Source: Falciphora oryzae (lineage: Eukaryota > Ascomycota > Sordariomycetes > Magnaporthales > Magnaporthaceae). From it: a DNA stretch of 64,000 nt. Below the pieces are notes generated by a model, which was given only the letters and a program-made list of their open reading frames with translations, had not been told where the DNA came from and made no database searches. Made by a program: the position numbers and the translations under genes. Positions 34,681-55,894 of this stretch are shown one piece after another. Where the stretch lies: the NCBI GenBank assembly GCA_000733355.1, contig JNVV01000062.1, positions 28,661-92,660 of the forward strand, in the 5' to 3' direction. Position 1 is the stretch's first letter; every line of letters begins with the position of its first letter.

Positions 34681-35045
34681 TTAGGGCAGGTTTGGTGGTA
34701 AATGGTTTTTTGGTTTTTTATTTTTTGCTAGTTTTTTGGTGCTTGGAAACCCCTTTACCAACAAGTGCATTTAAAAGCTTAAAACGTTTGGTTAAAAAAG
34801 AACTAACGTGGTTCACAAGCGAGTGGCGCACACAAGCGAGTGGCGCACTTGAAAAATGCATATTAAACAGCGTTTTTTTTCAATTAAATAACTCGCTCAA
34901 TTTGCGGCTAAATTCTACTAAAATTTAAACAGTTATATTTAACTGTAACGTGGTTTATCAGTGAGTGGCGCACATCAGCGAGTGGCGCGTTTTCTATCGC
35001 GATTCGCGTTTCCCACTTCCAACTTCAATTGCTTAACAACCACAA

Positions 35046-36663
35046 ATGGCATTAATATCCAACGAAGCTAGAATTGCTTTTGTAATACGGGCAATGCAAT
35101 TTAATGCGCAATTAAGCGTGCGTTCGGCCGCTAAAATCTACGACGTCCCCGGAACCACGCTACGTCGCCGACGCGCCGGCTAACCCGCTCGACGCGACAC
35201 GATGCCCAAATTACGGAAATTAACGGAATCCGAAGAGGAGGCGTTTGTTAAGTACATATTCGAGCTGGATTCCCGCGCATTTCCTCCCCGGCCTTTTGGT
35301 GTTGAAGATATGGCTAACCGACTGCTCGCCGAACGCGACGCGGGCACCGTTGGCAAGTGCTGGGTCGAAAGGTTCGTTAAACGCCGCGCAGAGCTTGGTA
35401 CGCGCTGGATTCGAAAGTACGACTACCAGAGGGCTAAGTGCGAAGATCCCAAGCTCGTTTTTGTATGGTTCGACTTTGTGCGGAACATTATCGACAAATA
35501 TGGCATTTAAGATAACGATATTTATAATTTCGACGAAACCGGCTTCTTTATGGGCATGATCGCGGCCGTTATGGTTATTACAACATCGGAAGGCCGTGGT
35601 AAAGCAAAGCTAGTCCAGCCTAGCAATCGGGAATAGGTTACAGTTATCCAAAGGGTCAACTGTTGCGGTTGGGCGATCCCCCCTTTTATTATCGTTAAAG
35701 GGCAGTACTATTTAGCCAATTGGTATTCGGAAACCGACCTTTTACGCGATTGGGTTATCGCAACAAATTCCAACGGGTGGATTACGAACGAGCTCGGCCT
35801 GGAATGGATCCGGTATTTCGATAAACACATTGCAGCTTATTTTACGGGGTTACATCGTTTGTTAGTGCTGGATGGCTACGAAAGCTACTATTTAACGGAT
35901 TTCGAGCTTTATTGCCAAGAATATAACATTATTACGCTTTGCATGCTTCCGCATTCGTTTCATTTCTTTTAGCCGCTTGACGTTGGGTGCTTTAGCCCAA
36001 TGAAAAAGGCGTACGGTCGATAAATCGAAAACCTAATAAGGTCGTACGTTAATTACGTGATTAAAGTCGAGTTCCTTTCGGCGTTTAAAGCGGCATTTTT
36101 TGCTTCTATAACTAAGGAAAATATCCAAAGAGGTTTCCGAAGGGCTGGCCTTATTCCTTTTAATCCGGATTTGGTTTTGGAAAAGCTGGATGTGAAGTTA
36201 CGGACTTTAACCCCTTTAAGGACGCCTTTAAACGATCCCGAACTTTGGATTTCCAAAACGCCCCGGATAGCTAGGGAAGCAATTTCGCAATCCGAATACA
36301 TTAAAACTCGGATTTCCAATTACTAGGGCAGCTTTCTAACATCTATGCTAGCGGCTGTGGACCAGTTTGCGAAAGGGGCTAAGGTAATTATGCATCGGGT
36401 TAACCTTTTAAAGGAAGAGTGTTTTAGGTTACGAAGGGCGAACGAAGTATTAAGCAAACGCCGGAGGGCTAAAAAAACACGTGTCCGATTTGGAAGGTTA
36501 CTTACTATCAACGAGGTACGAGATGTTTTGGACCAATAGGAGCTGGATGGATAGTTATAGTAAAAAATGCGCGATTATAGGGGTCAAAAAAGGAGGGCGA
36601 CGACGATTCGTCGGCGATGTGGCACTTGCGGCAAAACCGGACACAATGCGCGTACTTGTTAGG
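35046..36663 (+). pseudogene. RIP-damaged pogo/Fot transposase
   Basis: From ATG 35046 the frame shows a psq-type helix-turn-helix (SVRSAAKIYDVPGTTLRRR) and a CENP-B-type HTH. The DDE domain follows (DIYNFDETGFFMG; LLVLDGYESYY; PLDVGCFSP), and a C-terminal CCHC knuckle CGTCGKTGHNARTC. At least six in-frame TAA/TAG codons interrupt it, several where the family has Gln (CAG or CAA changed to TAG/TAA), the pattern expected of RIP. It cannot code an active enzyme. Confidence 0.85.
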
Positions 36664-36813
36664 AAGAAGTAGAAATGTCCGATGTATATAGTTCTGAGTA
36701 GTTTGAATGGATTCCTGGCGTTGTTGGGTTGGTATGCGCGTCGATTGTCGAATGGTTGAATTTGGGTGCGCCATTCGCTGATGTGCGCCATTCATTGATG
36801 AACTACGTTATAG

Positions 36814-36963
36814 TAAATCTAAATTAATTTTTTCAGATTTTTATTTTTACTTTTTTAAAGTTAGTTTTGCAAAATTGTAAAAAATTCACAGTGTTTTACA
36901 CAGTGTTTGAAACTAACCTTAAAAAGGAAATAATAAAAATCTGAAAAAATTAATTTAGATTTA
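36814..36963. mobile_element. 150-bp MITE-like foldback element nested in the right TIR
   Basis: The first and last 32 or so bases (TAAATCTAAATTAATTTTTT... / ...AAAAAATTAATTTAGATTTA) are perfect inverted copies and pairing continues with few mismatches to about 55 bases, leaving a loop of about 40. It interrupts the right terminal repeat of the pogo element: the left copy of that repeat lacks it. A TA duplication at the ends would fit a Tc1/mariner-type MITE. No coding capacity. Confidence 0.8.
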
Positions 36964-37260
36964 TTACATAATTAAATATAACTGTTTAAATTTTAGTAGA
37001 ATTTAGCTGCAAATTGAGCGAGTTATTTAATCGAAAAAAAACGCTGTTTAATATGCATTTTTCAAGTGCGCCACTCGCTTGTGTGCGCCACTCGCTTGTG
37101 AACCACGTTAATTAACAGTTAAAAATTTGTTTTTATTAAGTTTTGCAAAAATTACATCAGATTTAAATTTGGAAAAAACCGTCGGTTTATAGCTTTTGTA
37201 TGGAAAAAACAAAAAACACCTTTACCACCAAACACGCCCTTATTATAATAAAGTAGGTCC

Positions 37261-37668: not shown

Positions 37669-38012
37669 TTAGCTGGGATTTTCACAACCTAGCCTTGCAG
37701 AATCAACAAGCCTTGTTTAGCAAACATTTCTAATTTTCTGAACAAGCCTTGTACACCTCTACAGGTCTTGTTGGACACCTTTCATTTCCGAGACGGTGCT
37801 ACCTAGATGGTAGCACAGCATCCATACCGGCCTTTTGTCGGTAGAATTACCCCTCTTCCAGATAATATGTGCTCTTCCAAGGGATGACCCCGGCCCCCTC
37901 CAAACCTCAACACCAACATCCAATATTTGAGCCCAAACCCGGCCTTCGTTGACGTTCGATCAAAGAGCTTACTGCTATAGATCTATTCCCGTTAACCATT
38001 CAATCCAGTATA

Positions 38013-39009
38013 ATGGAAGCAGCTCGCCAGTATCTCGCATCTGGTAGGCACGGCCGCTATGGTATTGTGCCAGTCCGTGCCGCCCATACCATTGAGCCCA
38101 GCCAACCTGGGCACTCTTTTTCGCCCAAGCCCAGCACTTCGGACTACCGGCTTTGTGGAACATGTGTGCAATTAGACATGGAACACCTGCGGGAGCTCAG
38201 CGCCACGGGCGACCACGGTGGCACGCTTCTGAACCACAGGCTTGGCGGTATTTACAAGAACCGCGAGATATGCGACCTGTGTTGCGTCATGGACCAGGCC
38301 ATCAAAGACTATAGGGATACCGGACTTCATCCTCTCTGGGAATTCCCGCCACAATTTGTCATGGGATTTTATTCGGCCCTTCCAGATGACGCCAGAGTCC
38401 TCCTTCGGCTCCATTGCCTTGGCGGGCGCAGTTTTACCTGGTTTGGGGATGAAAGCTGGCGACGGAACTCCACATACGATCCCTGGAACCCAGGCTTTGC
38501 TATCGAAATCCTCGCGGAGGTCTCATCTGATCCCAAAAACCCAGAATTTCTACTCACTGGGATGATCAGCTTGTATCTCCGAGACGCCAAGCCAGGTATT
38601 TTCAAATCCCGCTATTGCTTCAAGATTTCCTTTCGGAGACCCAATCGGGATGTTTGAATAACAACTTCAATGAAAATGACACAGAAGACGAAATCTCCCA
38701 TATCGTCCCAAAACGCGCAAAAACCTCTCCAGATTCCGAAGAGACTATGCGCACAATAAAGTCCTGGTTGGATGTGTGCACCAGGAGCCACGGAACTTGC
38801 AAAGCAACGCGGAGACACCAAGCACCGCCACGGCTGATTGAAGTCTCGCCAGATCACAGCCTGGTCCGGTTGGTAGAATCGAATAATCTCCAGGAGCCGT
38901 TTTGCGCCCTGAGTTATTGCTGGGGAAACGTCGAATGCCTTACCACATCAAGGTCCAACTACCATGCTCTCCTCCAACGGATCCCTGTGGAGAAACTATG
39001 CCTTACTAT
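38013..39009 (+). pseudogene. HET-domain protein gene, 5' half (split by transposon)
   Basis: ATG 38013; probable exon 1 to 38595, GT-AG intron 38596-38684 (phase 1), exon 2 to 39009. The N-terminal part has Cys pairs (CGTCVQLD, CDLCCVMD), then the first HET box FCALSYCWG and RIPVEKL. At 39010 the coding stops at the terminal repeat of a Mutator-like element, preceded by the target duplication CCTTACTAT. The rest of the gene resumes at 49779. HET proteins take part in heterokaryon incompatibility and other nonself-triggered cell-death reactions in filamentous ascomycetes. The gene is disrupted here. Confidence 0.88.
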
Positions 39010-39294
39010 GGGAGTGTCTATCCAGCCCCTGCGTTTGGCTATTTGGCCCCAAGATAGTGGATCCACTGTGCGGATTATAATTAGATTCGACTTTTCATGT
39101 ATTTCCCACCCAAATAATCCCTGCTCCCGAATCCCCGGATGTACCGATCAAAGCGCTACGGTCTATCGCCTAACTCCTTACTTTTCCAATTAAGATTTTC
39201 CCCCACAACAACGCATGCACAACAACAACAACCCTCCGTACCGCCTTTTTGAAGCTATTCCCACGCACCCACGCACGCTAACAACGCTATCGCT

Positions 39295-41719
39295 ATGGAG
39301 TTCCCTGCTACTTACGCGACCGCCGACGAGGCTACGGCCGCTTTAAAAAGCCAGGCGCACGCTGCAGGCTACGAGATAATCCTCCGGGACAAGTACGTCG
39401 GCGCTGACGGCGTCGTTTTTTGCGTTCGATTCCGGTGCGGGAGAGGCCGTTCCGTGGCCTCCTCGGCCTTGCCCGCCACCTATAAGAATAAACGTTGGCG
39501 GACGGCGACTAAGATGACAGGCTGCCTTTTCCGCACGAGTATTAAGCGCTTGAATACGGGCAAATGGGTCGTCGAGCTTCCGAGCGGAGATTACAACCAT
39601 GATCTTGCCGATTTTTTAGCCTCGTTTTTTGCCTACCGGCGAAGCAATTTCGAAAAGCATAAGCAACGGATATTGCCTTTTTGGAGGGCCGGCGCGCGCC
39701 TTAAAGCGATTATCGCGGCCTTGGAGGAGGAGGCAAAGGAGATAGGCCGGCCCGTTGCCTTTACCTATAAGGATTTCGTTAATTGCCTGCAAATCTATCG
39801 GCGAAAGGAGCTTAAAGGCAGAACCCCAATTGCGTGGCTTTACGACGTAATCCCCTTTTTTCCTTTTGCTATCGCTTTCCCTATTAAAATATATGCTAAC
39901 CTATATATCCTAATAGCAATTAAATAATCCCGCTAATTACTTTTATCGAAATTTCCGCAACGAATAAGGCCGCGTTTTGTGCCTTTTTATCGCGCCCAAA
40001 TCGGCCTTCCCTTTCTATCGATCCGCCCCTAACCTCCTCGCTTTCGATTGCACTTATAAAACGAACCGATTTAACTTTCCCCTGCTTAATATTTGCGGTA
40101 TTTTGCTTTATAAACGAAGCTTTTTTTTAGCTGCGGCGTTCGTTAACGCGGAAAAGGAAAAACAATATCGTTGGGCACTCCGGGTGCTGGGAGAGTATTT
40201 GCAAAAGGAGGACCTACCGTACCTAAAATTCGTGATTACGGATCGAGAGTTGGCCCTAATTAACGCCTTTAAACGCAACGCCGGCTTCTATTTAGTGCCA
40301 CGTATCCTTTGCCGTTAGCACGTTAATATAAACGTGCTCGCCAAAACCAAGCGCTTTTTCCCGCCCGCCCAAAGGCAGGCTGACGGCTCGATCGAGCGGC
40401 ACCCTCGTTTTTAGTCGTTTTTGCAAGCGTGGAACGATTTTTTGGCCTTACCTACGGAAGCGGTTTACGAAAAGCGTTTGAAAGATTTCCAAAGGCCCGG
40501 TAAATACGCGGAGGGCGCTATGCTTTATACCGTAAGCACGTGGCTTAATCCTTATAAGGAACAACTCGTGGGCGCCTGGGTTAACGCCTTACGGTACTAC
40601 GGATACCGCACAACCTCGATCGTTAAGTCCCTTTACGCCGGCATAAAAACCTTTATCAATAAAGCCGGCGGCGACCTGGCAACGGTTTATAAAAGGTTGC
40701 GCCTTTATTGGAGGACCTAGGCGAGTACTGTCGAGTTATTGCGAGCAACCCAGTTTAATAAAATGCCGTTTAGCTATAAAATAGTGCTATTTTTTACGGT
40801 AAGGACTCTTTTTGTGCACTAAGCCCTCCGCCTCGTTAAGATAGAAAAGTCGGCGATCCCCGATCAGCCTCGCAGTAACCGGTGGGATCTGCCACCGCTT
40901 ACGCCGGGCAACGGCCTATGCGATTGCACGATTACGGCAACCCACGGCCTGCCCTGCCGCTACGTTGTTTTCCGCCATTTGCAGGAAGATCTGCCGTTGG
41001 AGATTACCCAATTCGATCCTTTTTGGTGGTGGCACCCTTATGAGGGACAGGGAGCCAACGAGGTAAGCCCTGCTTCCTTTAACGACGAAGGACATTTATC
41101 GCCACCTCCGCCACCGCCTGGACCTATAGATCCGTTGGTTATCCGGAATAAGGGCAGGCCTAAGGGCTCGATCGCAATAGGGCCGGGGGCTAACTTAATA
41201 AGGCGGTTGCCAAATGCCTACGAGATTGCGGGCCTCGAGGAGGCCCGGGATGCTTTGCCGCCCTTAACGGCCCCCTTTGCAGTAGGCAGGGCCCTTGTTA
41301 GCAGGGGATCTTCCCTGGCACGTAACGAGGCCCCCACGTCGTCTGCCCCTGAACTGGGCCTGCTTAAACCCGGGCCCGAGTTACGCCCTGCTAATTTGGC
41401 AGGGCGCGCCTCCGCCGTTGACCTGACAAGGTTAAGCCGACCCCCAGCCTTAAAGGATCTCTCCCACCCCCTCGATCTCTACGAACCAGGCACGGCCGCA
41501 TTACGGCGCTTAGCACGCCTTTTTGCCCGCCTCGCCGACGAGGTTGACGACGAGGTACTTGAGGCCGCGTTTTCGCAAATGACGCTTCCAGATAATGAAT
41601 ATAACGATATTCCGGTAATAAACGAGGGGGATTTTGACCGTATAGTTGAAGAGGCGCTTTTACAGGCTAAATTGGGCGCCCAGGAGACCCAGGAATGCAT
41701 TGTTGTTGAAGCCTTTTAG
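39295..41719 (+). pseudogene. MULE transposase (FAR1-like), broken
   Basis: Starts MEFPATYATADEATAALKSQ (39295) with a FAR1-type DNA-binding region (GVVFCVRFRCGRGR, KMTGCLFRTSI). The MULE core includes LLAFDCTYKTNRFNFPLLNI and FVITDRELALINAFK, and a SWIM-type zinc finger CDCTITATHGLPCRY follows near 40920. A Pro-rich tail ends at 41719. It is broken by in-frame stops and frame changes near 39925, 40317, 40412 and 40718. Similar two-finger organisation is known for fungal Hop-type MULEs. Confidence 0.85.
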
Positions 41720-41750
41720 AAGATGACTTTGAGCATAAAAAGATTATTAC

Positions 41751-42050
41751 TGTTGGATTGCACTGGCCTGTGCAGGCAATCGGCAGAGCTCAGAAAGGGC
41801 CGGATCCTCCTGTCCCGTGATCTCTGATCACGGGATCCGAGGACCCGCAAGCCCGCGGAGGTTGGGAGCAGGGGAGGGCCCCTTTGGTAATCTGGATCGT
41901 GTATATATAGCCTCCCTTCTACTCCCTCTCTGGCAGATAGATTCCTCTCCTCTGTATGCACAAGAATAAATTGATCCTCTGATATAAAGGATCATTGTTC
42001 ACCTTCTTTGGAAATCTCCGAACCCAACAAAAGTACCACTCCTACCAACA
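41751..42050 (+). repeat. 5' LTR of copia element
   Basis: 300 bp, TGTTGG to CCAACA. A TATA-like GTATATATA stands near 41910. It differs from the 3' LTR at 18 sites; at six of these (all in its inner half) this copy carries A where the other has G. Confidence 0.95.
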
Positions 42051-42379
42051 CTAATCAGTATTGCCCCAAAGCAATACAGAGAAGCAAGGTAAAGGGTCCC
42101 TTTGGAAACCCCGACCTATCCTGCAGGCCAAAGCGGTTTCCGACTGGATCTGGAGCAAAAAACCCCCAATCTCCCGCTCGGTAGCGCATTCAAAGAAAAC
42201 CGGCAAAACTCTCCTAAAAACCCCGACCTGTCCGGCAAGCTCGAGCGGTTTCCGGTTAAAAGATTTAACGATTTTCGCGGAAGGCGTTGCGTAATCCCCG
42301 GAAACCCCGACCTATCCTGCAGGCTCGAGCGGCTTTTGGATCAAAAAATCACCCCAAGCAATATCGCTTGCCAACCCCC

Positions 42380-45300
42380 GATAACATATCCGGATTAACC
42401 AACCCGGACGATAACGAGCGCAAAAAGCAAAAGATTTTGGATTAGGAGCTCCTAAACGCACTTAAGGACTTTAGTCTGCCGAAAACTATCCTCGCCGTAT
42501 GCGATCTACAATTTTACAACGAGCAGAACTTTACGCTAGGATACTTACCAAACAACGCATCCAACGAGCGCCGAAACACTTGGATCATTAAAACGATAAT
42601 CGCAAACAAACCATACAAAAGCGAAAACCTATTTGCTACTTACCTCAAAAACTTTAAAGGATGAACCCAGCAATACTTTAAAGATATTGATATCCGGATT
42701 ACACGAGCGTTTAAAGCCTTTTTAACAAAAAAAAGGATCACCTTCCCAGGCTATACAACGCTCAAAATTACCATCCGTTTCGCAAAACTCATTACAAAAA
42801 CAGCGGTACAAAACGCGGCGATCGAAAAAACATAAAACCCCCAATTTCCCAATCACAAAACGAACGTAAAAACCGAAACCAATCAACTGGCCGAAGCCTT
42901 TACTTCGGACCAACCCCTTCAATTACCGCCCTTTTTAAACCCCAAACGGTTAACAAACGAAATACCGATTTCGCAATCCCATAAACCAAATCGCGGTAAT
43001 CCTACGACGGGTGGAACTAGCCCATAGCTAAATTTGCCGACCCAACTTTAGGCAACCCTACCACTGCTTCGACAACTAAAAGAAAAAAGGTTTACAAATT
43101 ACAACGATTTCGGTAACCCTTTCCAAAAACAGACGAAACCCACGGCCGCGGCGGTCAGCCATAAACGCCACCACCAGGCGTACTTGGAAGCCTAGGCGCG
43201 GCTAACCGACGGAATAACGCGCTAACGATTACGCCTCGAAACCCCAATGCCAGCCCGGTACGAAACAACACCTCCACCACTATCTAACTACCGGAAGCTC
43301 CCACCGGTTAAAATCCCTAATGCTATAATCGATACGAGCATAATAAAGGCGTTTAAATAAGTATAGGATAAAAAGCATAGCTACACAAAGGAATAGTACG
43401 ATATCCTCGATAATAAGGTCCTATTTTTCACGGACACATGCGAAATGCTTGGGATTCCCCTTCCACAACTCCATACGCTTTTCCCATTAACCTTACGGGG
43501 CCGTATTGCTTGATACTTTACCTTTAAGATAAGTAAAGGTTATACCTTTAAAGCGATTTACCTAGCCTTCTAAAAGCATTTCGACACTAAGGTTAACAAA
43601 CAACAATACTACACAAATTGGAGCTCGATCACCTTCCAAACTGTACGTTTTAAAAGCGGAAACGCAGATAAATCCAATATAAAAGTATTGCAAATCCTGC
43701 TCGATAAATTCCAAATTTGCCAACGAGCATTAGGACCTGCTTACTAAAAAGATCACTAGCTCGTAACAAGCACCATCCGTATAATCCAAGGAATTCCTAA
43801 GCTAAAAATGGCCCTTTCCAAACCCGAAAAAACCTTTAAAGGCTTGGCCTCCCAGTTTAAAAGCACGATGCAAATGGAAAAAAACGTTAGTATATTAGGC
43901 ATCCATTTTGTGGAACGACGATTCGGAAACGCTACTCGCCCCGATTACCGCACAAGCATTCGAAACAACTTCCGATCCGGAAAACCCGGGAAGCGAAAGC
44001 TAAAGTGCTGGACGTGCGGCAAACTAGGATACCGTTCTAAAAATTACACGCCCAAAGAACAAAAGCAAGCCAAAAAGCTGTAGAAACGAAGGCGAAAAGC
44101 TCGCGGCGAGCCAAGGAAAGGGTACAAATAATTCTTCGCAATTTACGAATTTAATAGCAGCGACGAGGAAGACTAGGAAACCGCGTTTAAAAATACCCCC
44201 GATTATACAACGGATAACGAATATAATTTAGTAAATACCCATTTTATAACACTAGCTACGGTAATATACTTCGCTAATAAAGCTTTCCTATACCGCCTTT
44301 ACGGTACCAAAACGCCGAATTTAAATAAAAAGGAACCCACGGTACTAATAAAGCAGGTACTTGTCCAATACATGCTTATAACCACCGACAAATGGTACGG
44401 CATCATCCCCGACACCGGCGCGGTAGAAGTATCAACTGCCGAAACGACCCAATTCCAAACTTTGTAACGCTATTTGCCTAATTTTTTTTTAGATACCACC
44501 AGGAAGAAAAAACGCGTGCGCTTTGGATCCGGAAAAGCCATTTCCAGCATAAGAAAAATCATCCTACCGACCCCGATAGGCACTATTACATTCCATATAA
44601 TGCCTACGCCAACCCCGTTCCTCCTTTGCATCGACGATATGGATACGTTCGAGGTATACCTTAATAACACCCGCAACGAGCTAATAACCAAGCAAGGCAA
44701 GCGCGTTCCAATTATAAAACGCTACGGCTACCCTTAATTCTTTCTAAACGAAATTAGCTACGTTACGATAAGCATTTCGTTTATAATAAAACCAAAAAGC
44801 GTAAAAGCAACGTATTTTACGGAAGCTAAGCTTAAACGCGTTCACAAACGCTTTAAGCACCCCTTTATCGAACGACTTTGGACTGTTTTCCAACGAACTG
44901 GCTACGAAACTAATCGCAACGCTTTGGAAATAATTAAACGCGTATGCCATTTCTACCAAATCAAAGCACCCGCACAATAACGGTTCCGGTTCACGCTTAA
45001 AAAAAACATCGATTTTAACTATAAAATTGTCGTTAACGTAATATATCTAAACGGCAAACCAATATTTTATATAATCGATACGAACATAGCATTTAACGCC
45101 GCAACGTTCCTAAAGGACATAAGCGCAAAAAAAACTTAGGAAGCTTTCAAACGCTGCTGGTTGGATACTTATTTGGGGCCCCCAAACGTTATATCTTACG
45201 ACGTAGGTACTAACTTTATAACGAACGAATTCCAAACGGAAACAAAGCTTTTTGGGATTACCTACAACCAAATCCCGATCGAAACGCATTAATTAATAAG

Positions 45301-47840
45301 TAAGGTGGAAAAATACTACGGACTACTCCGCTAAGCTTACGAAATAATCCGGAAGGAATGCCTTGATTTGCACCCCGATTCCGTGCTTTAAAAAGCTATC
45401 AAAGCCATAAACGATACGGTAGGACCTAACGGCCTTATCCTTACGCTGCTCGTTTTCGAAGTAATGCTACGTATTAATAACAACTTTCCCCCAACAAAAA
45501 GCCAGGTTTAAAAAGCGGTAGCGATTACCAAAGCTATAGGAGAGCTCCGAAAGCTCCATGCCAAACGCAAAGTATAAAACGCCCTGAACACGCGCAACGG
45601 GCCGAACACGAAAAACACTTTGCCCAACGCGCTAGCTCTAAAAACAAAAATGTTAATGCATAAGGAAAACGGCGAATAAAAAGGACCGTATAAAATCCTT
45701 TAGGTAGCAAATAACGAAGTAACGATCGAAACTGTCAACGGCCTTTCAACGTTCCGGAACATTGCTTGTAAGCCATACCACAAAGCGTAAAAGCAGGAAA
45801 TTGCAATAACGGAAAAGCAACCAGCTCCGTTCGAATATCCACTACAAACGGAACCAAAACGGAAAAGGAGACCGTTAAAGGTTACGAAAACAATGGCGGC
45901 AAACGCGTCCAGCGATAGCAAAGCCTTTTCCGAAATCGAAATTGCACCCCCACCCGTACCCGCTAGGCCCGGTAAACCACGGAAAGCACTTGCCCAAAAA
46001 GCACCGGCACTAACGGTACCTAAGGCACCAGCCCCTAGACGACGAGGACGACCCCCGCGCTAAACAGCAACGGCATTCCTAGCTTAAAAAGAAAAAAAAT
46101 CCCTACGTTTGGCGCTTTAATACCGACAAAAAGGCAAAATCAAAGCTCCCGGACGCCTATTTGAAGAATCCGACTGGCTTAAAATCGAAGCACTTTTTGC
46201 CGCCGGAGTGATTAAACCGATTAAACTAAACGGCATTGGTAGCGCGAAAATTTTTAGGTCCCGCTTTGTTAAAGAAATTAAAGGCACTAATTCGATCCCT
46301 TATGAGAAATCGAAATTTGTAGTGCAAAAATATAGCGATTGGAAAAAGAAAAGCCTTTTTACCCAATCCCTAACGATTATGCGATGCAGCTAACGCCTAA
46401 TCCTCGCGCTTAGCCCGTCCTTTATAGAATAAAGCTTTATGCTAATAATCAAAAACATCAGCCAAACGTACACCCAATCCGAAACAAAGCTGCAAAGGGA
46501 GGTTATTTTGCGCCTTCCTAAAGAATTGGAATATCGGTACCTAAAGGGCACGGCCCTTCAACTGATCAAACCGCTTTACGGATTAGCCGAGGCAAGGCTG
46601 CATTGGTTCGTCACGTACTAGAGGCATTATAAAGAACGATTGGATTATTCCACTTCGGAATATAATCCGTATTTGTTTATTTTAAAAATCGGCTAAAGCT
46701 TTGGAATAGTTGGCATATAAACCAATAACATTTTAAACTTAAACAACGCCGAATTTATGCAAAAGGAGGAAATAGCGTTTTAGGAAGCCGGGTTTAAAGC
46801 GAAACCAAAATCGATCCTATACCCCGGAAACGAAGGCAATTTTAACGGATGCAAGATTTTGGTTAGACAAAACGCTGTTACTATGCAGCAAAAAGGACAA
46901 GCAAATCGTTTAAAGCTGGTAACTACGGGATTAGATGATACCTAATAGCAATACGTCGTATAACGCGCACGAAAAGCATATGTAAGCTCGATATGCCAGC
47001 TAGAAGCCGCTTTCGACTACTTTATGACTGCATAAGCTAAAGATCCTATAAACACAAACGTATTTAAGCTTAACAAAAGGATCTAATAGCAAATCGACAA
47101 CGCAAACAAAGGCTTAAACTACGTGCAATTAAATCTATAAACAACCAGCTTATATGTATTTGTAAACGGGTCCTTCGCTAATAACTAGGACCTTAATTCA
47201 CAAATCGGCTTTATAATCGTTTTAAATAACGAAAAAGCTACAAAGCAAAAAAATAGCTTCCGGGTTACCGGCAACATCCTGCACTGGAACTCCGTAAAAT
47301 ATAAAAGGGTTATAAAAAGCGTTTTAGCGAGCGAAATTTACGGCATGGTTAACGGCTTCGATACCGGCTATATCCTAAAAACAACGCTCGCAACGATTTA
47401 TAAAAAGATAAATCTGCCCCCTTGCAAATTAATCATTTGCACCAACAGCTTTTCGCTTTACCAATGCTTTATTTAATTTGGAACTACTACGGAAAAACGC
47501 CTTATAATAAATATTATAGCTTTCCGCGAATCCTACGAAACGCGCGAAATCGACGAAATCAAATAGATCGCAGGGGCAAATAACCCGGCCAACGCTATAA
47601 CAAAAAAGCTGCTAAATAAAGCTTTAAAAAACCTTATAAGCAGCAATTTAACTACCGTAAAAGTGGAAAAATAGGTAAAGCGGGATTACAAATAAAAAAA
47701 AGCTAAAGAATGCATACAAAATCGTTTTCCATAATACCAAAACGCCAAAATCCCTAAAAACAACGCAAAAATCGACAAAACAAAAATGCTTAAATCAAAA
47801 AAGCAACAAACGACTATAACGAAACAACAAACGATTTTAT
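42380..47840 (+). pseudogene. Copia gag-pol, heavily mutated
   Basis: Pieces recognised in order: a zinc knuckle CWTCGKLGYRSKNY near 44007 in which the His and last Cys of CCHC are both Tyr; protease motif IIPDTGAVE (near 44406); integrase with the D, D and E residues in YIIDTNIAF, SYDVGTNF and KVEKYYGLLR (45070-45335); reverse transcriptase LIKPLYGLAEARLHWF (near 46563); RNase H ILHWNSVKYKRVIKSVLASE (near 47277). Dozens of TAA/TAG codons interrupt the frames, many where Trp (TGG) or Gln is expected. No function remains. Confidence 0.88.
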
Positions 47841-48296
47841 AACCAAACTTTTTCCAAATATCCCATCAAACTTTCCTTTACTCCTCCTTCTTGTTATTTT
47901 TGCCATTTCCCAACCAAACAGCTTCGTATATCCTCAAAACGGCCGCGCGGCCCGCCGCCTTCCGCTCTAATCGCGTTATTATTAAAAAGTCGGCATTAGC
48001 ATCCTCCTAATCCCTATCCTTAACCGTTAGCTACAGTATGCATTTGATAGTAATACGCCACTTATTAAAGGTTTAAGGATTATAAAAAAACACGTTAGCA
48101 AACGCACCTAAAGCACTAAATTAAAAGAACAAACTTACCTTTTTATCGCGATTATCGCGACCCCATTCCATTATAAACTTAAGCGCCGGACGCAACGCGA
48201 TTAAAGGATTAGAAAATAATTAAAACGAATTTTAAAAAAAATGTGGGAAAATCGAAATGCTTACATGGGCTAACAAATGTAGCCCGACGCGCATAG

Positions 48297-48755
48297 CTAA
48301 CAGCGCTTTTTAACCGGGATTATATCCCGACAGCTATCGCCCTTTTTCATTTTGCCGGCGAAAGCGGATTTTAAGCAACCCAAGCAAAGGATAACGCGCA
48401 AAGCGCCCTTTCCACCGCGCGGACCCGGTGCAAAAACCGTCTTGCCACCAACAGCAGGCCTAACGATCTTAATAGCCGCCTTCTTCTTCTTATCCGACGA
48501 AGCAGGCGCAAAATCGGCGTTCTCAAAATCGAAATCATCATCAAACGGGTCAAGGAACTGATCGACAACGGCGTCGGCAGCCGCGGGCGCAAACGCGACC
48601 GAAGGTGCAAAAATGGCCATCGCAAGATCGAAAGCCTCAGCGGCAAAGCCTTAAAACCGCTTTAAAGATCTGCCACCGCTACGCGCGACAAATCGAAACT
48701 TCCGAACCTTTTTAGCGACCGCACCAAACTTAATATTGCCCTTCTTATTACCCAT
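48297..48755 (-). pseudogene. Antisense extra ORF in the copia 3' region
   Basis: On the minus strand a frame from ATG 48755 (MGNKKGNIKFG..., Lys/Arg-rich) runs to 48297 with one in-frame TAA at 48651-48653. Parts: basic N terminus, Ala/Asp/Phe-rich acidic middle (FLDPFDDDFDFENADF) and a Cys-containing end (CLGCLKSAFAGKMKKGDSCR). This stretch is richer in G+C than the pol region around it. No family recognised. It is not needed for a standard copia element. Confidence 0.5.
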
Positions 48756-49281
48756 AGTAACGAAAGCGACCAAAAAGTCAACCGATAAAAAACTAATCGA
48801 ACAAAGCGGGTAAAAAATGCTACAAACAAAAAGCAATACAAGCGGACGATCTGGATCAACGAAGTTTACCAAATCAAATTGCCCGACCTTTCAAAGGCCG
48901 GAAGGAAAGCTCTTTATAAAACCTAAACCCGGCCTGCAAAAAGTCCTTAATCTACGTTCCTATTATCCCGCATTAAATCACAATCTAAATAGCCCGTTAA
49001 AGTTATTCACTACTATTGTACTTTTTAATTGCACCACCCACCGCTCTACCCGCGCACCGCAAACCAAATCCGGTGGACCCCATCACGTCATCGTTCCTAT
49101 TATCGTTATTAAAGGCGACAAGCCGCTTTAAAAGCGGCTATTCAATCTTTTCCTAATCCGGACTATTTGGTTCGGAGATTCCCTTTGTTATTAACCTTAC
49201 AAAATCCAATAAAGCTAGGATCACGGGATTTGTCACGTAAAGGGATCTCCCAATTGCCTGCACAAAAAAAAGAGTTGCCGG

Positions 49282-49581
49282 TGTTGGATTGCACTAGCCT
49301 ATGCAGGCAATCGGCAAAGCTCAGAAAGGGCCGGATCCTCCTGTCCCGTAATCTCTAATCACGGGATCCGAAGACCCGCAAGCCCGCGGAGGTTGGAAGC
49401 AAGGGAAGGCCCCTTTGGTAATCTGGATCGTGTATATATAGCCTCCCTTCTGCTCCCTCTCTAGCAGATAGATTCCTCTCCTCTGTATGCACAAAAATAG
49501 ATTAATCCTCTGATATAAAGGATCATTGTTCACCTTCTTTGGAGATCTCCGAGCCCAACAGGAGTACCACTCCTACCAACA
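49282..49581 (+). repeat. 3' LTR of copia element
   Basis: 300 bp, same ends as the 5' LTR, same length, no indels. It carries A in place of G at 12 of the 18 differing sites, all within its first 223 bp. A purine run precedes it (about 49264-49274), possibly the polypurine tract. Confidence 0.95.
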
Positions 49582-49778
49582 ATTACGGCTTTTTTTATGG
49601 TGTTGAGCTTTTTTGATTTTCTACGATCCATAGGGCTGATATGAAATACCTCCAGATCTTTCGCCATTAGGTGGAAATTTGGCAGAGGTACCGAATCCGT
49701 GTGTGGTGGCACTGTGGACCCGCAATCTTGGGGCCAAATAGCCAAACGCAGGGGCTGGATAGACAGCCCCCTTACTAT

Positions 49779-51235
49779 TCAGCAGGCCATCAACATTACA
49801 CGCCGCATAGGTTACAAGTACCTATGGGTTGATGCCATTTGTATAGTGCAAAACGACAAGGACGATTGGAAACGACACACTCTTATAATGGGGTCGATAT
49901 ACGCCAACGCAATCCTGACGATTGCTGCTACCTCGGCCTCCAGCGGTGAGGAAGGGTGCTACTTACCGAGCTCCGAAGCTTCCGCAGGCGAGGTGTCACT
50001 ATTTACATACGAAGCCCGTGTCCCCTGCGTCTTCTCTGGCCGGTACGTGGGAGACATGTTTATCGTTCCGTTCCACAGGCACTATGACGGCTTGCACACA
50101 GGACTTGCCACCGTAAAGCCGGATTTTTACACCGACCTACGAGCTAGCCGTTGGAGCAATCGCGCCTGGGTGTTTCAGGAGCGGTTCTTCTCACGCAGGA
50201 TTGTCTACTTCGCCAAAAGTCAGGTCTACTGGCAGTGTGAAACATGCATTGCCAGTCAAACCTTCCCCTGGCTAGAATCTTTGACGGAGCGAGCTGTTAA
50301 AGACAGCGACAACCGCTGGAAAGACCTGAAAAACTTGAAGCAAACCTGGGGCGCTTTCCTCCAATTATACACCCGCGCGGGCATCAGCTATTCTTCGGAT
50401 CGCCTTCCAGCCCTCGCGGCTATAGCTCGAGAGGCTGAGCGAGTCCATGGACACAGCTACGTGGCAGGACTCTTCGCGGATACGCTCCCGCAGGCTCTAC
50501 TGTGGATGGCGAACAATCTAGAAGAGAAGCTCCGAGCCCCTGCGGGTGTGAGCCCCCTGGAACGAGGTACGTTCGATCTGAGAACAGTCCATGACTGTCG
50601 AAGACAAGATTTGAGACTTGGTGCTGCTGCTTACTGACAAAATTTGCAATTCTCTTCAGCCTCAAGTTGGAGCTGGGCACATTGGGAAGGGCCCATCAGC
50701 ATTGTGCCCGTCCCCAACAGTCCAGCTCCCAATCACATGGGATCAAAGGACATCAGAATACTTAAATTCGGGCATGACGACAGTCACCACCAGTCTGCAT
50801 TGGTTTTCTCTTCATTAATGAGCAAGGTTACTCGCTCTTCCTGCCCCATGGCCCGCGATGAGCTCCGAATGCTCAACCACAACCTGGGCTATAGACATGG
50901 CTTCCTTAGAGGGAGCCCTATGCCACGTCATTCTCAGCCCCACAGACCATGGTTTTCTGGTTTTCGACGACCCAGACTCTGCCCCGCTCGACTGCGGGCT
51001 GATTTACATTTGCCAAGTCCCCTTTACTGGCTTTCCGTCTCCCCGTGGCCGCGCCGAGGGCGAGATAGATCTATCGCTGGTTGTGGAATTGGTCGAGAAG
51101 CCTCCTGAGCTTGAAAGTCAAAGCCCCAAACTTCCCTGCTACAAACGCCTCGGGGTGGCCTATCAGATCCGAGATCATTCAGAGAGCACGGAGATAGCAA
51201 TACCCACTCCGCCCCGAGAGATCATCCTCGTATGA
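49779..51235 (+). pseudogene. HET-domain protein gene, 3' half
   Basis: Resumes in the frame left at 39009. It carries the second HET box (LWVDAICIVQNDKDDW) and the third (RAWVFQERFFSRRIVYF, VYWQCE). A GT-AG intron at 50567-50659 joins ERG-type sequence to ASSWSWAHWEGPIS, the usual HET C-terminal WSW motif. After about 50826 the sense changes frame. GTTACT...CTATAG would fit by position, but the phase is wrong by one base, so this is an undetected intron or a frameshift. The last part ends at 51235. With its 5' half 10.8 kb away the gene is dead as it stands. Confidence 0.85.
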
Positions 51236-51827: not shown

Positions 51828-53021
51828 ATGCGGCACATCACTCTTGCCAAACTCCTCTTCGCTGTGTGCGCAGGCTTCGGAGGCCTTGCGGCCGCGGCGC
51901 CCGCCACTCACGCCGTGGAGCAGCTCCAGGCCCCCGCCCGCCAGCAGCGGCAGCAGCAGCAACAGCGGCGGCGGCAGCCGCGCGACGACGCGGCCGCCAT
52001 CGCGCAGGAGACGCCCAAGTCGGCCATCGACCGGCTCAACGGCGGCTACTACAACCAGGCGCAAGGGCTCTGGTCGCCGTCGGACCCGTGGTGGCTGACG
52101 GGCAGCGCGCTGCAGAGCACGCTCGACTACATGAACACGACGGGCAGCCGCGAGTACTTGTCGCAGGCGCGCAACACCATTGACCGCAACAAGGGCGTGC
52201 TCCCCTCGTGGCCGCAGGGCGCAGGCCTGTTCCGCAGCGGCTCGACCGACGACACGGCCTGGTGGGCGCTGGCGCTGGTTCGCATGCACGACGTGACGGG
52301 CGACCAGCAGTACCTGGACATCGCCGAGCTGGACTTTGAGTACATCCGCGGCTACTGGGACGCGTCGTCGTGCGGCGGCGGCGTGATCCAGGAGCTGGAC
52401 CCGGCGCGGGAGCGGTACAAAAACGCGATCAGCAACGCGCTCTACGTCAAGCTGGCCGCGTCGCTCGCCATGCGCGACCCGACCGACCCGCAGTACCTGC
52501 GGCGCGCCATCGAGGGCTGGGAGTGGTTCCGCAAGTCGGGCATGATCAACGCCGACGGGCTGGTCAACGACGGCATCGACTCCCGGTGCAGGAACAACGG
52601 CCAGATGACGTGGACTTACAACCAGGGCGCCGTGATCGGGGCGCTGGTCGAGCTGAGCCGTGCGTCGGGCAACAGGAGCTACCTCGAGCCGGCCAAGGCC
52701 GTCGCCGACGCGGTGATGAAGAGCCCCGAGCTGATGCGTAGCGACGGGGTGCTCAAGGAGTCGTGCGAGGTGGACCGTGGCGACTTTTGCAACGCGGACC
52801 AGTCGGCCTTCAAGGGTATCTTTGCGCGCAACCTGGCGGAACTCGACAGGGCGCTGGACGGGAGCCCGTACCGCGCGTTCCTGCGCAAGAACGCGCAGGC
52901 CGCGTCGGGGCCCGGCCGGGACAGCTCCAGCAACTACGGGTTGAGGTGGGCAGGGCCTTTCAACGGGACGTCGATGAGCGCCCAGTCCTCTGCGGTTGGG
53001 CTGCTTGTGGCAGCTTTGTAG
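51828..53021 (+). CDS. Secreted glycoside hydrolase family 76 protein (alpha-1,6-mannanase-like)
   Basis: Single exon, 397 residues from ATG 51828. The start gives a signal peptide (MRHITLAKLLFAVCAGFGGL then AAAAPA). A Gln/Arg-rich linker (QQRQQQQQRRRQ) follows, then the GH76 (alpha/alpha)6 domain. The catalytic Asp pair lies in GSTDDTAWWALAL (Asp141, Asp142), and MTWTYNQGAVIGALVEL and NADQSAFKGIFARNL are typical family blocks. GH76 enzymes cut alpha-1,6-mannan backbones or, in the Dfg5/Dcw1 branch, transfer GPI-proteins to the wall. There is no clear GPI signal at the end here, so a free secreted enzyme is more likely. The gene looks intact despite lying between transposons. Confidence 0.9.
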   Translation: MRHITLAKLLFAVCAGFGGLAAAAPATHAVEQLQAPARQQRQQQQQRRRQPRDDAAAIAQETPKSAIDRLNGGYYNQAQGLWSPSDPWWLTGSALQSTLDYMNTTGSREYLSQARNTIDRNKGVLPSWPQGAGLFRSGSTDDTAWWALALVRMHDVTGDQQYLDIAELDFEYIRGYWDASSCGGGVIQELDPARERYKNAISNALYVKLAASLAMRDPTDPQYLRRAIEGWEWFRKSGMINADGLVNDGIDSRCRNNGQMTWTYNQGAVIGALVELSRASGNRSYLEPAKAVADAVMKSPELMRSDGVLKESCEVDRGDFCNADQSAFKGIFARNLAELDRALDGSPYRAFLRKNAQAASGPGRDSSSNYGLRWAGPFNGTSMSAQSSAVGLLVAAL

Positions 53022-53106: not shown

Positions 53107-53384
53107 TGTTGGATTATTATTCCAGCATTATTCTGGCGCATGCACTTAAGGGATCTGGAAGCCTGGAAGGCTTGGGAGGCCCGGGCCCTCCGGGGCCCCC
53201 GTGACCTGGAGGGCTAAGCCCTGTTGGCAATGTATATAAAGGGCTTGGTTGCCCTCCCTTCTAACAGATAGATCCCTTTCCTCTTCACGTGCACAATAGG
53301 TTATGATTCCTCTGATATAAGGGATCATTGTTCACCTCTTTTGGAGATCTCCGAGCCTGACAGGAGTACCAACTCCTACCAACA
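53107..53384 (+). mobile_element. Solo LTR, TSD CCTTC
   Basis: 278 bp starting TGTTGGATTATT and ending CTCCTACCAACA, with TATA-like GTATATAAAGG and the shared tail block GGAGATCTCCGAGCC. CCTTC flanks both sides (53102-53106 and 53385-53389). It lies right after the GH76 gene, whose stop is 85 bp upstream. No internal region remains, so it arose by LTR-LTR recombination. Confidence 0.9.
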
Positions 53385-53525
53385 CCTTCTATTGTTAGCA
53401 TAAGGCGTCGACCATTTACTCTGCACGGGAAAGAAGCAACCGCTGCCCGCTTCACCACAACGGGTGCTCCGCTCTCCCACGTCGTGCGTCGAACCAGTCC
53501 TGCCGCGGCAGGTTACATTGACTTA

Positions 53526-55378
53526 AGTCGGAACACCCCATGACCGCGCACCCCCATGACCGCGCACGAGCGTACGGATCCGCACCACCAACAACGCCGT
53601 TTTATATCTGCAAAATGAAGCTATTAACAACCCACAACGATGCAATCCTGGGTATCTTCCTGCTCAGGATCGTTTGGCGATTCCAATGATGCCTCAGGCT
53701 CCTCCAAAATCCCACGTCTTTTTTGGTAAATCCGCCTCCCAGATACAAACGTCTCGTTCGGGTCCGGCTTGACTGCCTTCCTTTTCCGCCCCTGCAGTGC
53801 CTCCAATTGTGCCTCCAACGCCTTGATTTTTTGCGAGGCTACAGTGATTTCTAAATCCTTTAACTCGTAGCCTTTGCGGACTTTCCTAAGCCAAAGCCGC
53901 TTGGTGGGGGTGGTCGGGATTGTACGGCTGAAATCCTCTATCTGGGAGGCCAACTTTCGACTTTGCTTGGGAGTGCTCCAATCTCTTTTGGCGGCGTTAG
54001 GCAACCTCGGGGGGTTCTTTTGTCGCCCCTGTTGCCTCGTAGGGGTTTTGGGAGCCTCGTGATCGTTTTTGTTAGAGTTTTCGAGCAAAAGCCTGCTTAT
54101 AAGCGGCTTTGTTAAACGCACCGGCTATAAGCTAAATGCATACCAACCCGCTTTGATATTAACTACCGTAATGCCTTTATTTCGTGCGTGCTTATATGCT
54201 TTTAAAAACTTTCGTTTGCCTACCGCCGTAGAGCAATAAAAAAGGGCTAGGGCGAAAATTACGGCCCTATACGCCCTTTTCAGGGGTGAGAAAACCGCTA
54301 AGTCAAGTGGCTGCAAAACGTGCGACGAGTGGGCCGGCAAATAAAGGAGAAAACGTCGTTTTGGTAGCAAAGGAACTAAAAACGCTTTGTAACGTGAGAT
54401 CCGTGGCCATCCAAAATTAGGAGGCGTTTTGAGGGAGGGTCGGGGCGGGTGGCCGGGAGGTAGATCTTTTCGAGCCACTTAACGCCGGTGCGGTCCGTAG
54501 TCCACCCGTTATCCGTATAAGTGAATTCCTAATCGTTAAATTGGCCGTTTTTTTCGGGAAACCATTAGTTTTGCACGTATTTTCCCTTAAATATAATGAG
54601 CGGCCGAAGCCTTACCCCCGTAGCGGAGATGCACTCGATAAAGGAGGTCCAAGTGCGTTTCCCTGGTTTTTTTTTTTTGCAACGGCCGGGTGCCCGAAGC
54701 ACTTAAAACGAGGCCGTTGCCCGTGCGGCCCTTTTGGAGGCCGCCCTCGTCGACGTTCTAGCGGTATTGGGGAGGAATCTTTTTAATTTCCGGTATTTCG
54801 AGGCGGTGCTACCACTCTTTGATTACGGCCGTTGTAGCCCCGTTAACGCGTTCCCTTTCCATGCCCCGGCCTTTGTGGATTTGGATTTCCGGATGCCGCT
54901 GCAAAAAAGCCGCCGGCCAACGTTTCCCTAGAGGCGTAGAGTCGCCGGCGGCTTTGAGGATTTCTTGCGCGTAGTAGCGTAACTCTCCGTGCGTTGGAGG
55001 AAGCCCCAGAGCGGTTTGCAGGCGTACCCAAGTAGCTAAATGCTTCTTTTGTACACCGGAAAGCCGTTGCCGTGGTTCTTTTGCTTGCCGGGTAGCTTCC
55101 GCGCCGTGAACCCGGCCCCGGAGGGTGGACTCCGGGATCGCCATTTCCCGGGCGGCACCACGGATTGACTACCCCCGGCGGAGTAAATCGAAAGCTTTAT
55201 TGATATTTTCTTCTGTATAACGAACGGGCATCTTCCCGCCTACAAGATGCACCAAAAACTAGATTAAACGGATGAAAATTGATCGAACGGTGGAAATAAA
55301 TTGTGTGCGCGTTGCACTGGTGGTGGAGGTACGCTCGTGCGCGGTCATGGGGGTGCGCGGTCATGGGGTGTTCCGACT
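53526..55378 (-). mobile_element. Second pogo-type DNA transposon (1.85 kb), TA target
   Basis: Ends are inverted copies starting AGTCGGAACACCCCATGACC, about 50 bp long, and flanked by TA on both sides (53524-53525 and 55379-55380). Each terminal repeat contains a tandem CATGACCGCGCAC unit. It codes a damaged transposase on the minus strand. It is unrelated in its ends to the element at 34681. Confidence 0.9.
53624..55231 (-). pseudogene. pogo-type transposase, broken
   Basis: Minus strand from ATG 55231 (MPVRYTEENINKAFDLLRRG) with psq HTH, a CENP-B HTH (RQRLSGVQKKHLATWVRLQT), part of the DDE domain (HSSHVLQPLDLAVFSPLKRA near 54330) and a coiled C-terminal region (KIKALEAQLEALQGRKRKAV). Stops and frame changes lie in the middle (54500-54810), so it is inactive. 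Confidence 0.8.
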
Positions 55379-55894
55379 TAATATCACGCAACGGTATGTG
55401 AATACGCGGTGAAATCACCAAGGACTACCTGGAAGATTGACTCATCCGTAGGCAACTTCACTCCTTCTGACTTGGAGGGATGAGACGGCTGCCACCTTCG
55501 AGAACAAAGGCAGCCGCCCACTTGTCTGCTACAAGGCAGGCGACAATCAACACGCCCGATAGTTCTACAGACAACAAGACTCCCCACACCAAAAAGGTCC
55601 ATCCGAGCCACCCTCATCATTGCAAGCCACAGGAGGCTTCCCCAGCCATGAGGCTGGGCGTATCCCACTGTCTTTGTTGGGAATTAGTGCTTGGGTGGAG
55701 GACCCGGTCAGGCAGCGTTTGGTAGCTGAAGGGCGTTGGTGAATCTTGAAGTCAACTTCATTGATATTTTAAGACCGAAAGCGCATGTTCGGTGATGGGC
55801 AGTGAGCTTTATTTGATGAATGCAGCAAATGAATGACAACAATGTACACGATCATTGCATCGATGTGAGAGGAGCTTGCTATAAGAAAGGGAGT
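55379..55894. other. Spacer right of second pogo element
   Basis: About 500 bp; no gene recognised. It leads into the direct repeat copy 2. Confidence 0.35.

What the first reader, a model, noticed from the sequence alone, without database searches (positions are those of the whole stretch)
38013..51235. HET gene split by a MULE that is itself split by a copia element, with all target duplications readable
CCTTACTAT (9 bp) flanks the MULE at 39001-39009 and 49770-49778; ATTAC (5 bp) flanks the copia at 41746-41750 and 49582-49586. The HET frame before 39009 (codon phase: AT of the last codon) fits the T at 49779 exactly, so one duplication copy plus the insertion removed restores a continuous HET box 1 - box 2 order. 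This gives the order of events: HET gene, then MULE, then copia. Loss of a HET gene by transposition matters because such genes set vegetative compatibility; other strains may carry the intact or empty allele.
Basis: seen in the sequence. Interest (0 to 1): 0.85.

Follow-up and report, generated by a model that had tools for sequence, protein, structure and literature searches.

The report
Fungal HET gene split by nested transposons
In this fungus a self-recognition-type gene was cut in two by one jumping gene, which was later cut by another; the gene is still uninterrupted in a related species, so this is a cleanly readable but ordinary kind of gene loss.

Summary
A HET-domain gene (38013-51235) is cut between HET box 1 and box 2 by a 2,925-bp Mutator-like element (MULE, 39010-49770), itself cut by a 7,831-bp LTR retrotransposon (41751-49581). 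In the uninterrupted relative RB599_010400 of Gaeumannomyces hyphopodioides the left half ends at residue 246 and the right half starts at 248: only the codon split by the insertion lies between. Three other full MULE copies in this genome lack the LTR element, so the MULE came first. Corrections: the MULE duplication is 8 bp (CTTACTAT), not 9; the HET gene also changes frame near 50,903. Both elements bear RIP-like mutations (the four close MULE copies differ by transitions only); the HET flanks show no such signal. In the same genome a MULE copy splits an NLR gene, a related MULE lies before a second HET domain, and a Tc1/mariner-type element splits a third HET gene. This hints at recurrent hits on allorecognition-type genes, but the enrichment test is weak. 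With about 150 HET domains here, an effect on vegetative compatibility is unknown. New member of a known kind.

The parts
38013..38595 (+). HET gene exon 1 (ATG at 38013; the orthologue gene models begin at a later Met)
   Evidence: with the left part of exon 2, 68% identical to P0152 over 247 aa
38596..38684 (+). HET intron 1 (89 nt, GT-AG)
   Evidence: spliced product matches P0152 without gap across the site
38685..39009 (+). HET exon 2, left part, with box 1 (ALSYCWG); cut inside a codon after 39009
39002..39009 (.). MULE target-site duplication, left copy (CTTACTAT, 8 bp)
39010..39071 (+). MULE left terminal inverted repeat
   Evidence: (I2)
39010..41750 (+). MULE left part, with transposase region (weak FAR1 match in 39253-39927; MULE-domain frame about 39917-41023, 5 stops)
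41746..41750 (.). LTR element target-site duplication, left copy (ATTAC)
   Evidence: single ATTAC in MULE copies C20 and C61, ATCAC in C17
41751..49581 (+). LTR retrotransposon (Ty1/copia-like by motif reading only), frames broken throughout
41751..42050 (+). 5' LTR (TG...CA)
49282..49581 (+). 3' LTR; 18 of 300 sites differ from the 5' LTR, all A/G
49582..49586 (.). LTR element target-site duplication, right copy (ATTAC)
49587..49770 (+). MULE right part, ending in the right terminal inverted repeat (49709-49770)
49771..49778 (.). MULE target-site duplication, right copy (CTTACTAT)
49779..50566 (+). HET exon 2, right part, with box 2 and box 3 (Pfam HET 9.1e-22, profile 36-146)
50567..50659 (+). 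HET intron 2 (93 nt)
   Evidence: product matches P0152 without gap
50660..51235 (+). HET last exon, with one change of frame near 50,903 relative to two orthologue models
51828..53021 (+). Neighbouring GH76 gene (synteny marker)
   Evidence: PF03663 2.3e-51; 87% identical to Gaeumannomyces tritici GGTG_07234 over 87% of the query

Best explanation
A HET-domain gene beside a GH76 gene, shared with Gaeumannomyces-like fungi, was inactivated when a cut-and-paste Mutator-like element inserted inside a codon between HET box 1 and box 2, duplicating 8 bp. An LTR retrotransposon then inserted in that MULE, duplicating 5 bp. RIP-like C-to-T mutation hit both elements but shows no sign of spreading into the HET flanks. 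The HET remnant also has a frame change in its last exon. Shown: structure, join, order of the two insertions, type of mutation. Inferred: loss of function (no transcript data), RIP as the cause of the mutations, the class of the LTR element, when the frame change arose, and when the mutations fell relative to the LTR insertion.
For: Uninterrupted relative P0152 (699 aa): left half 68% over 247 aa up to residue 246, right half 73% over 318 aa from residue 248. Paralogue C79 is consistent with contiguity at the same point. Synteny: M. poae HET MAPG_01868 (P0153) and GH76 MAPG_01867 (P0082) have consecutive tags; P0001 and P0032 both lie on contigs of 3,645 bp from one source. Order: copies C20, C17 and C61 are 2,925 bp, as long as the window MULE without its LTR element, and colinear without gaps. 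MULE identity: FAR1 2.2e-6 and MULE transposase PF10551 2.3e-20 in copy C61. RIP-like: 152, 163 and 164 differences between the window copy and C20, C17, C61 over 2,736 bp, 0 transversions, 0 gaps; against C17, C-to-T falls on CpA 66, CpT 46, CpC 7, CpG 4, where all of C17's 2,925 bp holds 179, 185, 304 and 240 such sites. HET flanks show no RIP signal (TA/AT 0.51 and 0.68). DNA-methyltransferase domains at two places.
Against: No reads, other isolates or transcripts could be examined, so assembly artefact and strain polymorphism stay open. RIP was not observed; CpA and CpT are hit about equally, whereas PMC1805685 (passage) states a CpA preference. The frame change near 50,903 could be a sequencing error. 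Mutation is uneven: 164 differences from C17 in the left 2,741 bp, 1 in the right 184 bp. The gene neighbourhood of P0152 was not seen, so its orthology rests on similarity and on the M. poae tags.
Confidence: 0.95

Rival explanations
1. The two HET halves still work as one gene, with the 10.8-kb insert spliced out as a giant intron, or as two separate genes.
For: Both halves keep open frames up to the insert.
Against: The cut is inside a codon of an exon that is continuous in P0152 and in paralogue C79; the last exon also changes frame; the left frame meets a stop in the MULE at 39,193.
Confidence: 0.03
2. Assembly artefact: repeated MULE and LTR copies joined unrelated stretches.
For: Both elements are repeated in the genome, and no reads could be checked.
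Against: Exact duplications at both levels, a codon-exact match to P0152 on both sides, and the HET right half followed by GH76 as the M. poae tags suggest.
Confidence: 0.02
3. Transposons in this genome are drawn to, or are kept preferentially in, HET and NLR genes, so this locus is one case of recurrent turnover of allorecognition-type genes.
For: Of 8 MULE-family copies with both ends held, 3 lie in or directly before HET or NLR coding sequence: window (HET), C17 (NACHT-HEAT NLR), C75 (HET). If gene bodies are 2.5 kb, P(>=3 of 8)=8.6e-5, or 0.0028 with the window copy left out. A DDE_1 element with TA duplication splits a third HET gene at C24 directly before box 1. HET domains within 1 kb of a listed element: 4 of 149, 0.99 expected, P=0.018.
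Against: HET against P450 is not significant (4 of 149 and 0 of 84, Fisher P=0.30); NACHT alone is not (1 of 85, P=0.43); within 300 bp HET is 1 of 149 with 0.57 expected; within 10 kb P=0.13. Noticed after the fact. Insertions in needed genes are removed by selection, which by itself favours survivors in dispensable families. Copy C4 splits a frame of no known family and C27 lies in a retroelement. That the C75 N-terminal exon and HET domain are one gene is inferred.
Confidence: 0.2

Closest known systems
Podospora anserina het-v (PMC9262711; passages seen)
   Same: An allorecognition locus where transposons occupy the place of functional genes (strain Y: about 12 kb with five genes replaced by a cluster of Tc1/mariner-like, Copia and Gypsy elements).
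   Different: There genes are replaced and the incompatibility role is proven; here one gene is split with both halves and all duplications kept, and its role is unknown.
P. anserina NWD pseudogenes (PMC1805685; passages seen)
   Same: Members of the non-self recognition repertoire lost by RIP (NWDp1, NWDp2) or beside a transposon relic (NWDp3).
   Different: Here RIP-like change is seen in the inserted elements and the HET gene is broken by the insertion.
Mutator-like elements (PMC6446971; passages seen)
   Same: FAR1 and MULE transposase domains, 62-bp inverted repeats, 8-bp duplication (8-11 bp stated for MULEs).
   Different: No tree was made, so the subfamily is not assigned.
HET gene RB599_010400 of Gaeumannomyces hyphopodioides (P0152)
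   Same: 66% identical over the whole 430-residue right-half query; same exon joins.
   Different: Uninterrupted and in one frame there.

Membership tests
HET-domain gene (PF06985) | HET domain over curated cut-off | tested here: met
   Right half 78.4 bits against 22.5, profile 36-146; box 1 lies in the left half, which alone has no Pfam match but matches P0152
HET-domain gene (PF06985) | Controls vegetative incompatibility (only some HET genes do) | not testable with these tools
   Needs barrage or heterokaryon tests; about 150 HET domains in the genome
Mutator-like element | MULE transposase domain | tested here: met
   PF10551 2.3e-20 in copy C61, colinear with the window copy; the window copy itself has 5 stops in that frame and was not matched to PF10551
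Mutator-like element | Terminal inverted repeats | tested here: met
   62 bp, 90%
Mutator-like element | 8-11 bp target-site duplication | tested here: met
   8 bp in 8 of 8 copies with both ends held
LTR retrotransposon | Paired LTRs TG...CA and short target-site duplication | tested here: met
Ty1/copia superfamily | Integrase before reverse transcriptase, shown by domain match | tested here: inconclusive
   No meaningful Pfam match to the broken pieces; motif order read by eye, motifs recalled
RIP | C:G to T:A transitions in repeats with a dinucleotide preference | tested here: met
   CpA and CpT about equal
RIP | Occurs in the sexual cycle, needs RID or DIM-2 (recalled) | not testable with these tools
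   PF00145 at two places, not assigned to RID or DIM-2
Starship giant element | DUF3435 captain nearby (recalled) | tested here: not met
   None of 26 matches listed is on contig C62

The most novel reading that the evidence does not exclude
Cut-and-paste elements in this lineage repeatedly and preferentially break HET and NLR genes, because loss of allorecognition genes is tolerated or favoured, so that transposon insertion works as a switch creating null alleles in the self-recognition repertoire.
Probability: 0.15. Interest if true: 0.6.

Novelty: new member of a known kind. Interest (0 to 1): 0.35.

Why it matters
It is a complete, ordered example of how a HET-domain gene is lost, with an uninterrupted relative as proof. 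It also offers a presence/absence marker: if intact and split alleles co-exist in the species, one can test whether the gene matters for vegetative compatibility. The wider pattern (three HET genes and one NLR gene with a transposon in or directly before their coding sequence in one genome) makes a testable question of whether transposons drive turnover of allorecognition genes.

Tried and rejected
A 9-bp MULE duplication was rejected. The A/G-only differences between the two LTRs (18 of 18) first looked like editing during reverse transcription; four other LTR pairs show both strands hit (48 of 49 differences are transitions, 1 is a transversion) and MULE copies likewise, so strand-biased RIP is the simpler reading. 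A Starship captain was sought; none of the 26 matches lies on C62. RIP leaking into the HET gene was looked for and not seen. A preference of transposons for HET genes was tested and is weak. I first read the change of frame near 50,830-50,905 as an intron; two orthologue models code through it. The exon-1 protein found no relative elsewhere in the genome at E 0.001. P0001 does not reach the junction. Paper searches: no title or abstract start in the listings concerned this locus, and one search listed none; the library lacks most subscription journals. I saw passages by term search, not whole papers, of PMC9262711, PMC6446971, PMC10890737, PMC1805685 and PMC12258605. In one search the element lists are capped; I used 47 of the 90 rows and 40 of the 42. 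The rows left out are short end matches or, as far as I saw, lie within about 0.6 kb of rows used. The repeat was not used.
Full report
What is there. The outer element carries 62-bp inverted repeats (90%) and the inner element two 300-bp LTRs, TG...CA. The window lies in a 50.18-Mb genome, contig C62:28661-92660. The neighbouring GH76 gene is 87% identical to Gaeumannomyces tritici GGTG_07234 over 87% of its length, which places the fungus near Gaeumannomyces and Magnaporthiopsis; the species was not identified.

The split gene. The left half (exons 38013-38595 and 38685-39009) is 68% identical over 247 residues to RB599_010400 of G. hyphopodioides (P0152) and ends at its residue 246; the right half (49779-50566, 50660 on) is 73% identical over 318 residues and starts at residue 248. 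The one residue between is the codon cut by the insertion. In the closest paralogue of the same genome, C79 (50%), the right half starts at base 1794; the left match stops 11 bases short of 39009 and, continued without a gap, ends at 1793. Synteny supports orthology: M. poae HET (MAPG_01868, P0153) and GH76 (MAPG_01867, P0082) bear consecutive locus tags, and P0001 and P0032 (relatives of the HET right half and of GH76) lie on contigs of the same length, 3,645 bp, from one source; that these are one contig is inferred. The neighbourhood of P0152 was not seen.

A second lesion. Against both P0152 and P0153 the right half changes frame once near 50,903, in sequence that both models code through. 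It may be decay, before or after the insertion, or a sequence error. No premature stop was seen in the rest of the matched HET sequence.

The MULE. Copies at C20, C17 and C61 are 2,925 bp, as is the window copy without its LTR element. Copy C61 has FAR1 (2.2e-6) and MULE transposase (2.3e-20) matches; the window copy has a weak FAR1 match (0.0037, below cut-off) and 5 stops in the MULE-domain frame. Duplications are 8 bp in 8 of 8 copies with both ends held: window CTTACTAT, C20 TTGTTGAA, C61 AAAATAAA, C17 TTTACCAA, C4 TTTATCAT, C27 TTTTTTAA, C18 CTAAAGTT, C75 TTAGAAAG. C20 and C61 exclude a ninth base; C17 does not decide. The ninth C in the window is read as the element's own end base next to a host C. 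Copies C24 and C32 were held at one end only.

Order of events. C20 and C61 read GATTATTACGGC where the window has the LTR element, and C17 reads the same with one T replaced by C; the window has ATTAC on both sides of the element. Hence HET, then MULE, then LTR element.

RIP-like mutation. The window MULE differs from C20, C17 and C61 at 152, 163 and 164 of 2,736 sites, with no transversion and no gap. Against C17 over 2,741 bp there are 123 C-to-T, 38 G-to-A and 3 in the other direction; C-to-T falls on CpA 66, CpT 46, CpC 7, CpG 4, where the whole C17 copy holds 179, 185, 304 and 240 such sites. The right 184 bp carry 1 difference. Window and C20 share 90 changed sites where 44.5 are expected if independent, so part of the mutation may predate their separation, or some sites are hot. 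The LTRs differ at 18 of 300 sites, all A/G. Against other LTR-element copies, 11 of the 16 aligned stretches over 400 bp have 0-3 transversions and 5 have 6-16. With no transversion among four MULE copies the upper bound is about 2.6e-4 per site and lineage, so these copies look young by a clock that ignores RIP; no date is given because no rate was tested. HET flanks show no RIP signal (TA/AT 0.51 in 38001-39000 and 0.68 in 50001-51000). DNA-methyltransferase domains occur at two places.

Other genes hit. C17's MULE splits a gene with NACHT (3.1e-13) on one side and HEAT repeats (3.2e-16) on the other. At C75 a related MULE (67% identical to the query over part of it) lies between a probable N-terminal exon and a HET domain (1.3e-27); that the two belong to one gene is inferred. 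At C24 a DDE_1 element (8.3e-9) with TA duplication lies directly before HET box 1, and the flanks, read by eye, give one HET frame. C4's MULE lies between two open frames with no Pfam match, and C27's in sequence with chromodomain and integrase matches. At C33 a frame next to a stop-bearing HET match runs into an LTR of the inner element's family that has no simple duplication. Among 149 HET loci outside C62, 4 are within 1 kb of a listed element against 0.99 expected (P=0.018), 1 within 300 bp (0.57 expected), 5 within 2 kb (P=0.023), 8 within 5 kb (P=0.017) and 9 within 10 kb (P=0.13); NACHT 1 of 85 within 1 kb (P=0.43), P450 0 of 84; HET against P450 P=0.30. The element lists were capped at the best candidates and partly used (see Tried and rejected).

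Meaning. The genome has about 150 HET loci (more matches existed than were listed), so loss of one is not by itself a compatibility change. Precedents for transposon or RIP loss of allorecognition genes exist in Podospora (PMC9262711, PMC1805685; passages seen). I file this as a new member of a known kind, unusually well documented.

Noticed in passing
window 53523-55381; L073 (C24) about 529-2685: A DDE_1 (Tc1/mariner-type) element with 53-bp perfect inverted repeats and TA duplication; other copies 89-97% identical and a group near 70%. The C24 copy splits a HET gene directly before box 1.
   Followed up: partly
window 34801-37113: A low-GC element with 142-bp inverted repeats (98%) around a core of about 1.9 kb; 40 scored candidates, main matches 79-92% identical, several near contig starts. 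Family not identified.
   Followed up: partly
window 53107-53387: Solo-LTR-like stretch related to the 300-bp LTRs, with relatives of about 72-89% identity in the genome.
   Followed up: no
L005 (C17): A MULE copy splits a NACHT-HEAT NLR gene with 8-bp duplication TTTACCAA.
   Followed up: yes
P0153 (Magnaporthiopsis poae MAPG_01868): The gene model jumps from the end of exon 1 to box 2, lacking box 1; either a faulty model or an independent lesion of the same gene.
   Followed up: no
window 39010-41750 and LTR copies: RIP-like mutation hits CpA and CpT about equally and is strand-biased in single copies (123 C-to-T against 38 G-to-A in the window MULE compared with C17).
   Followed up: partly
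genome list: 14 of the about 150 listed HET domain matches contain in-frame stops, which may be pseudogenes or introns.
   Followed up: no
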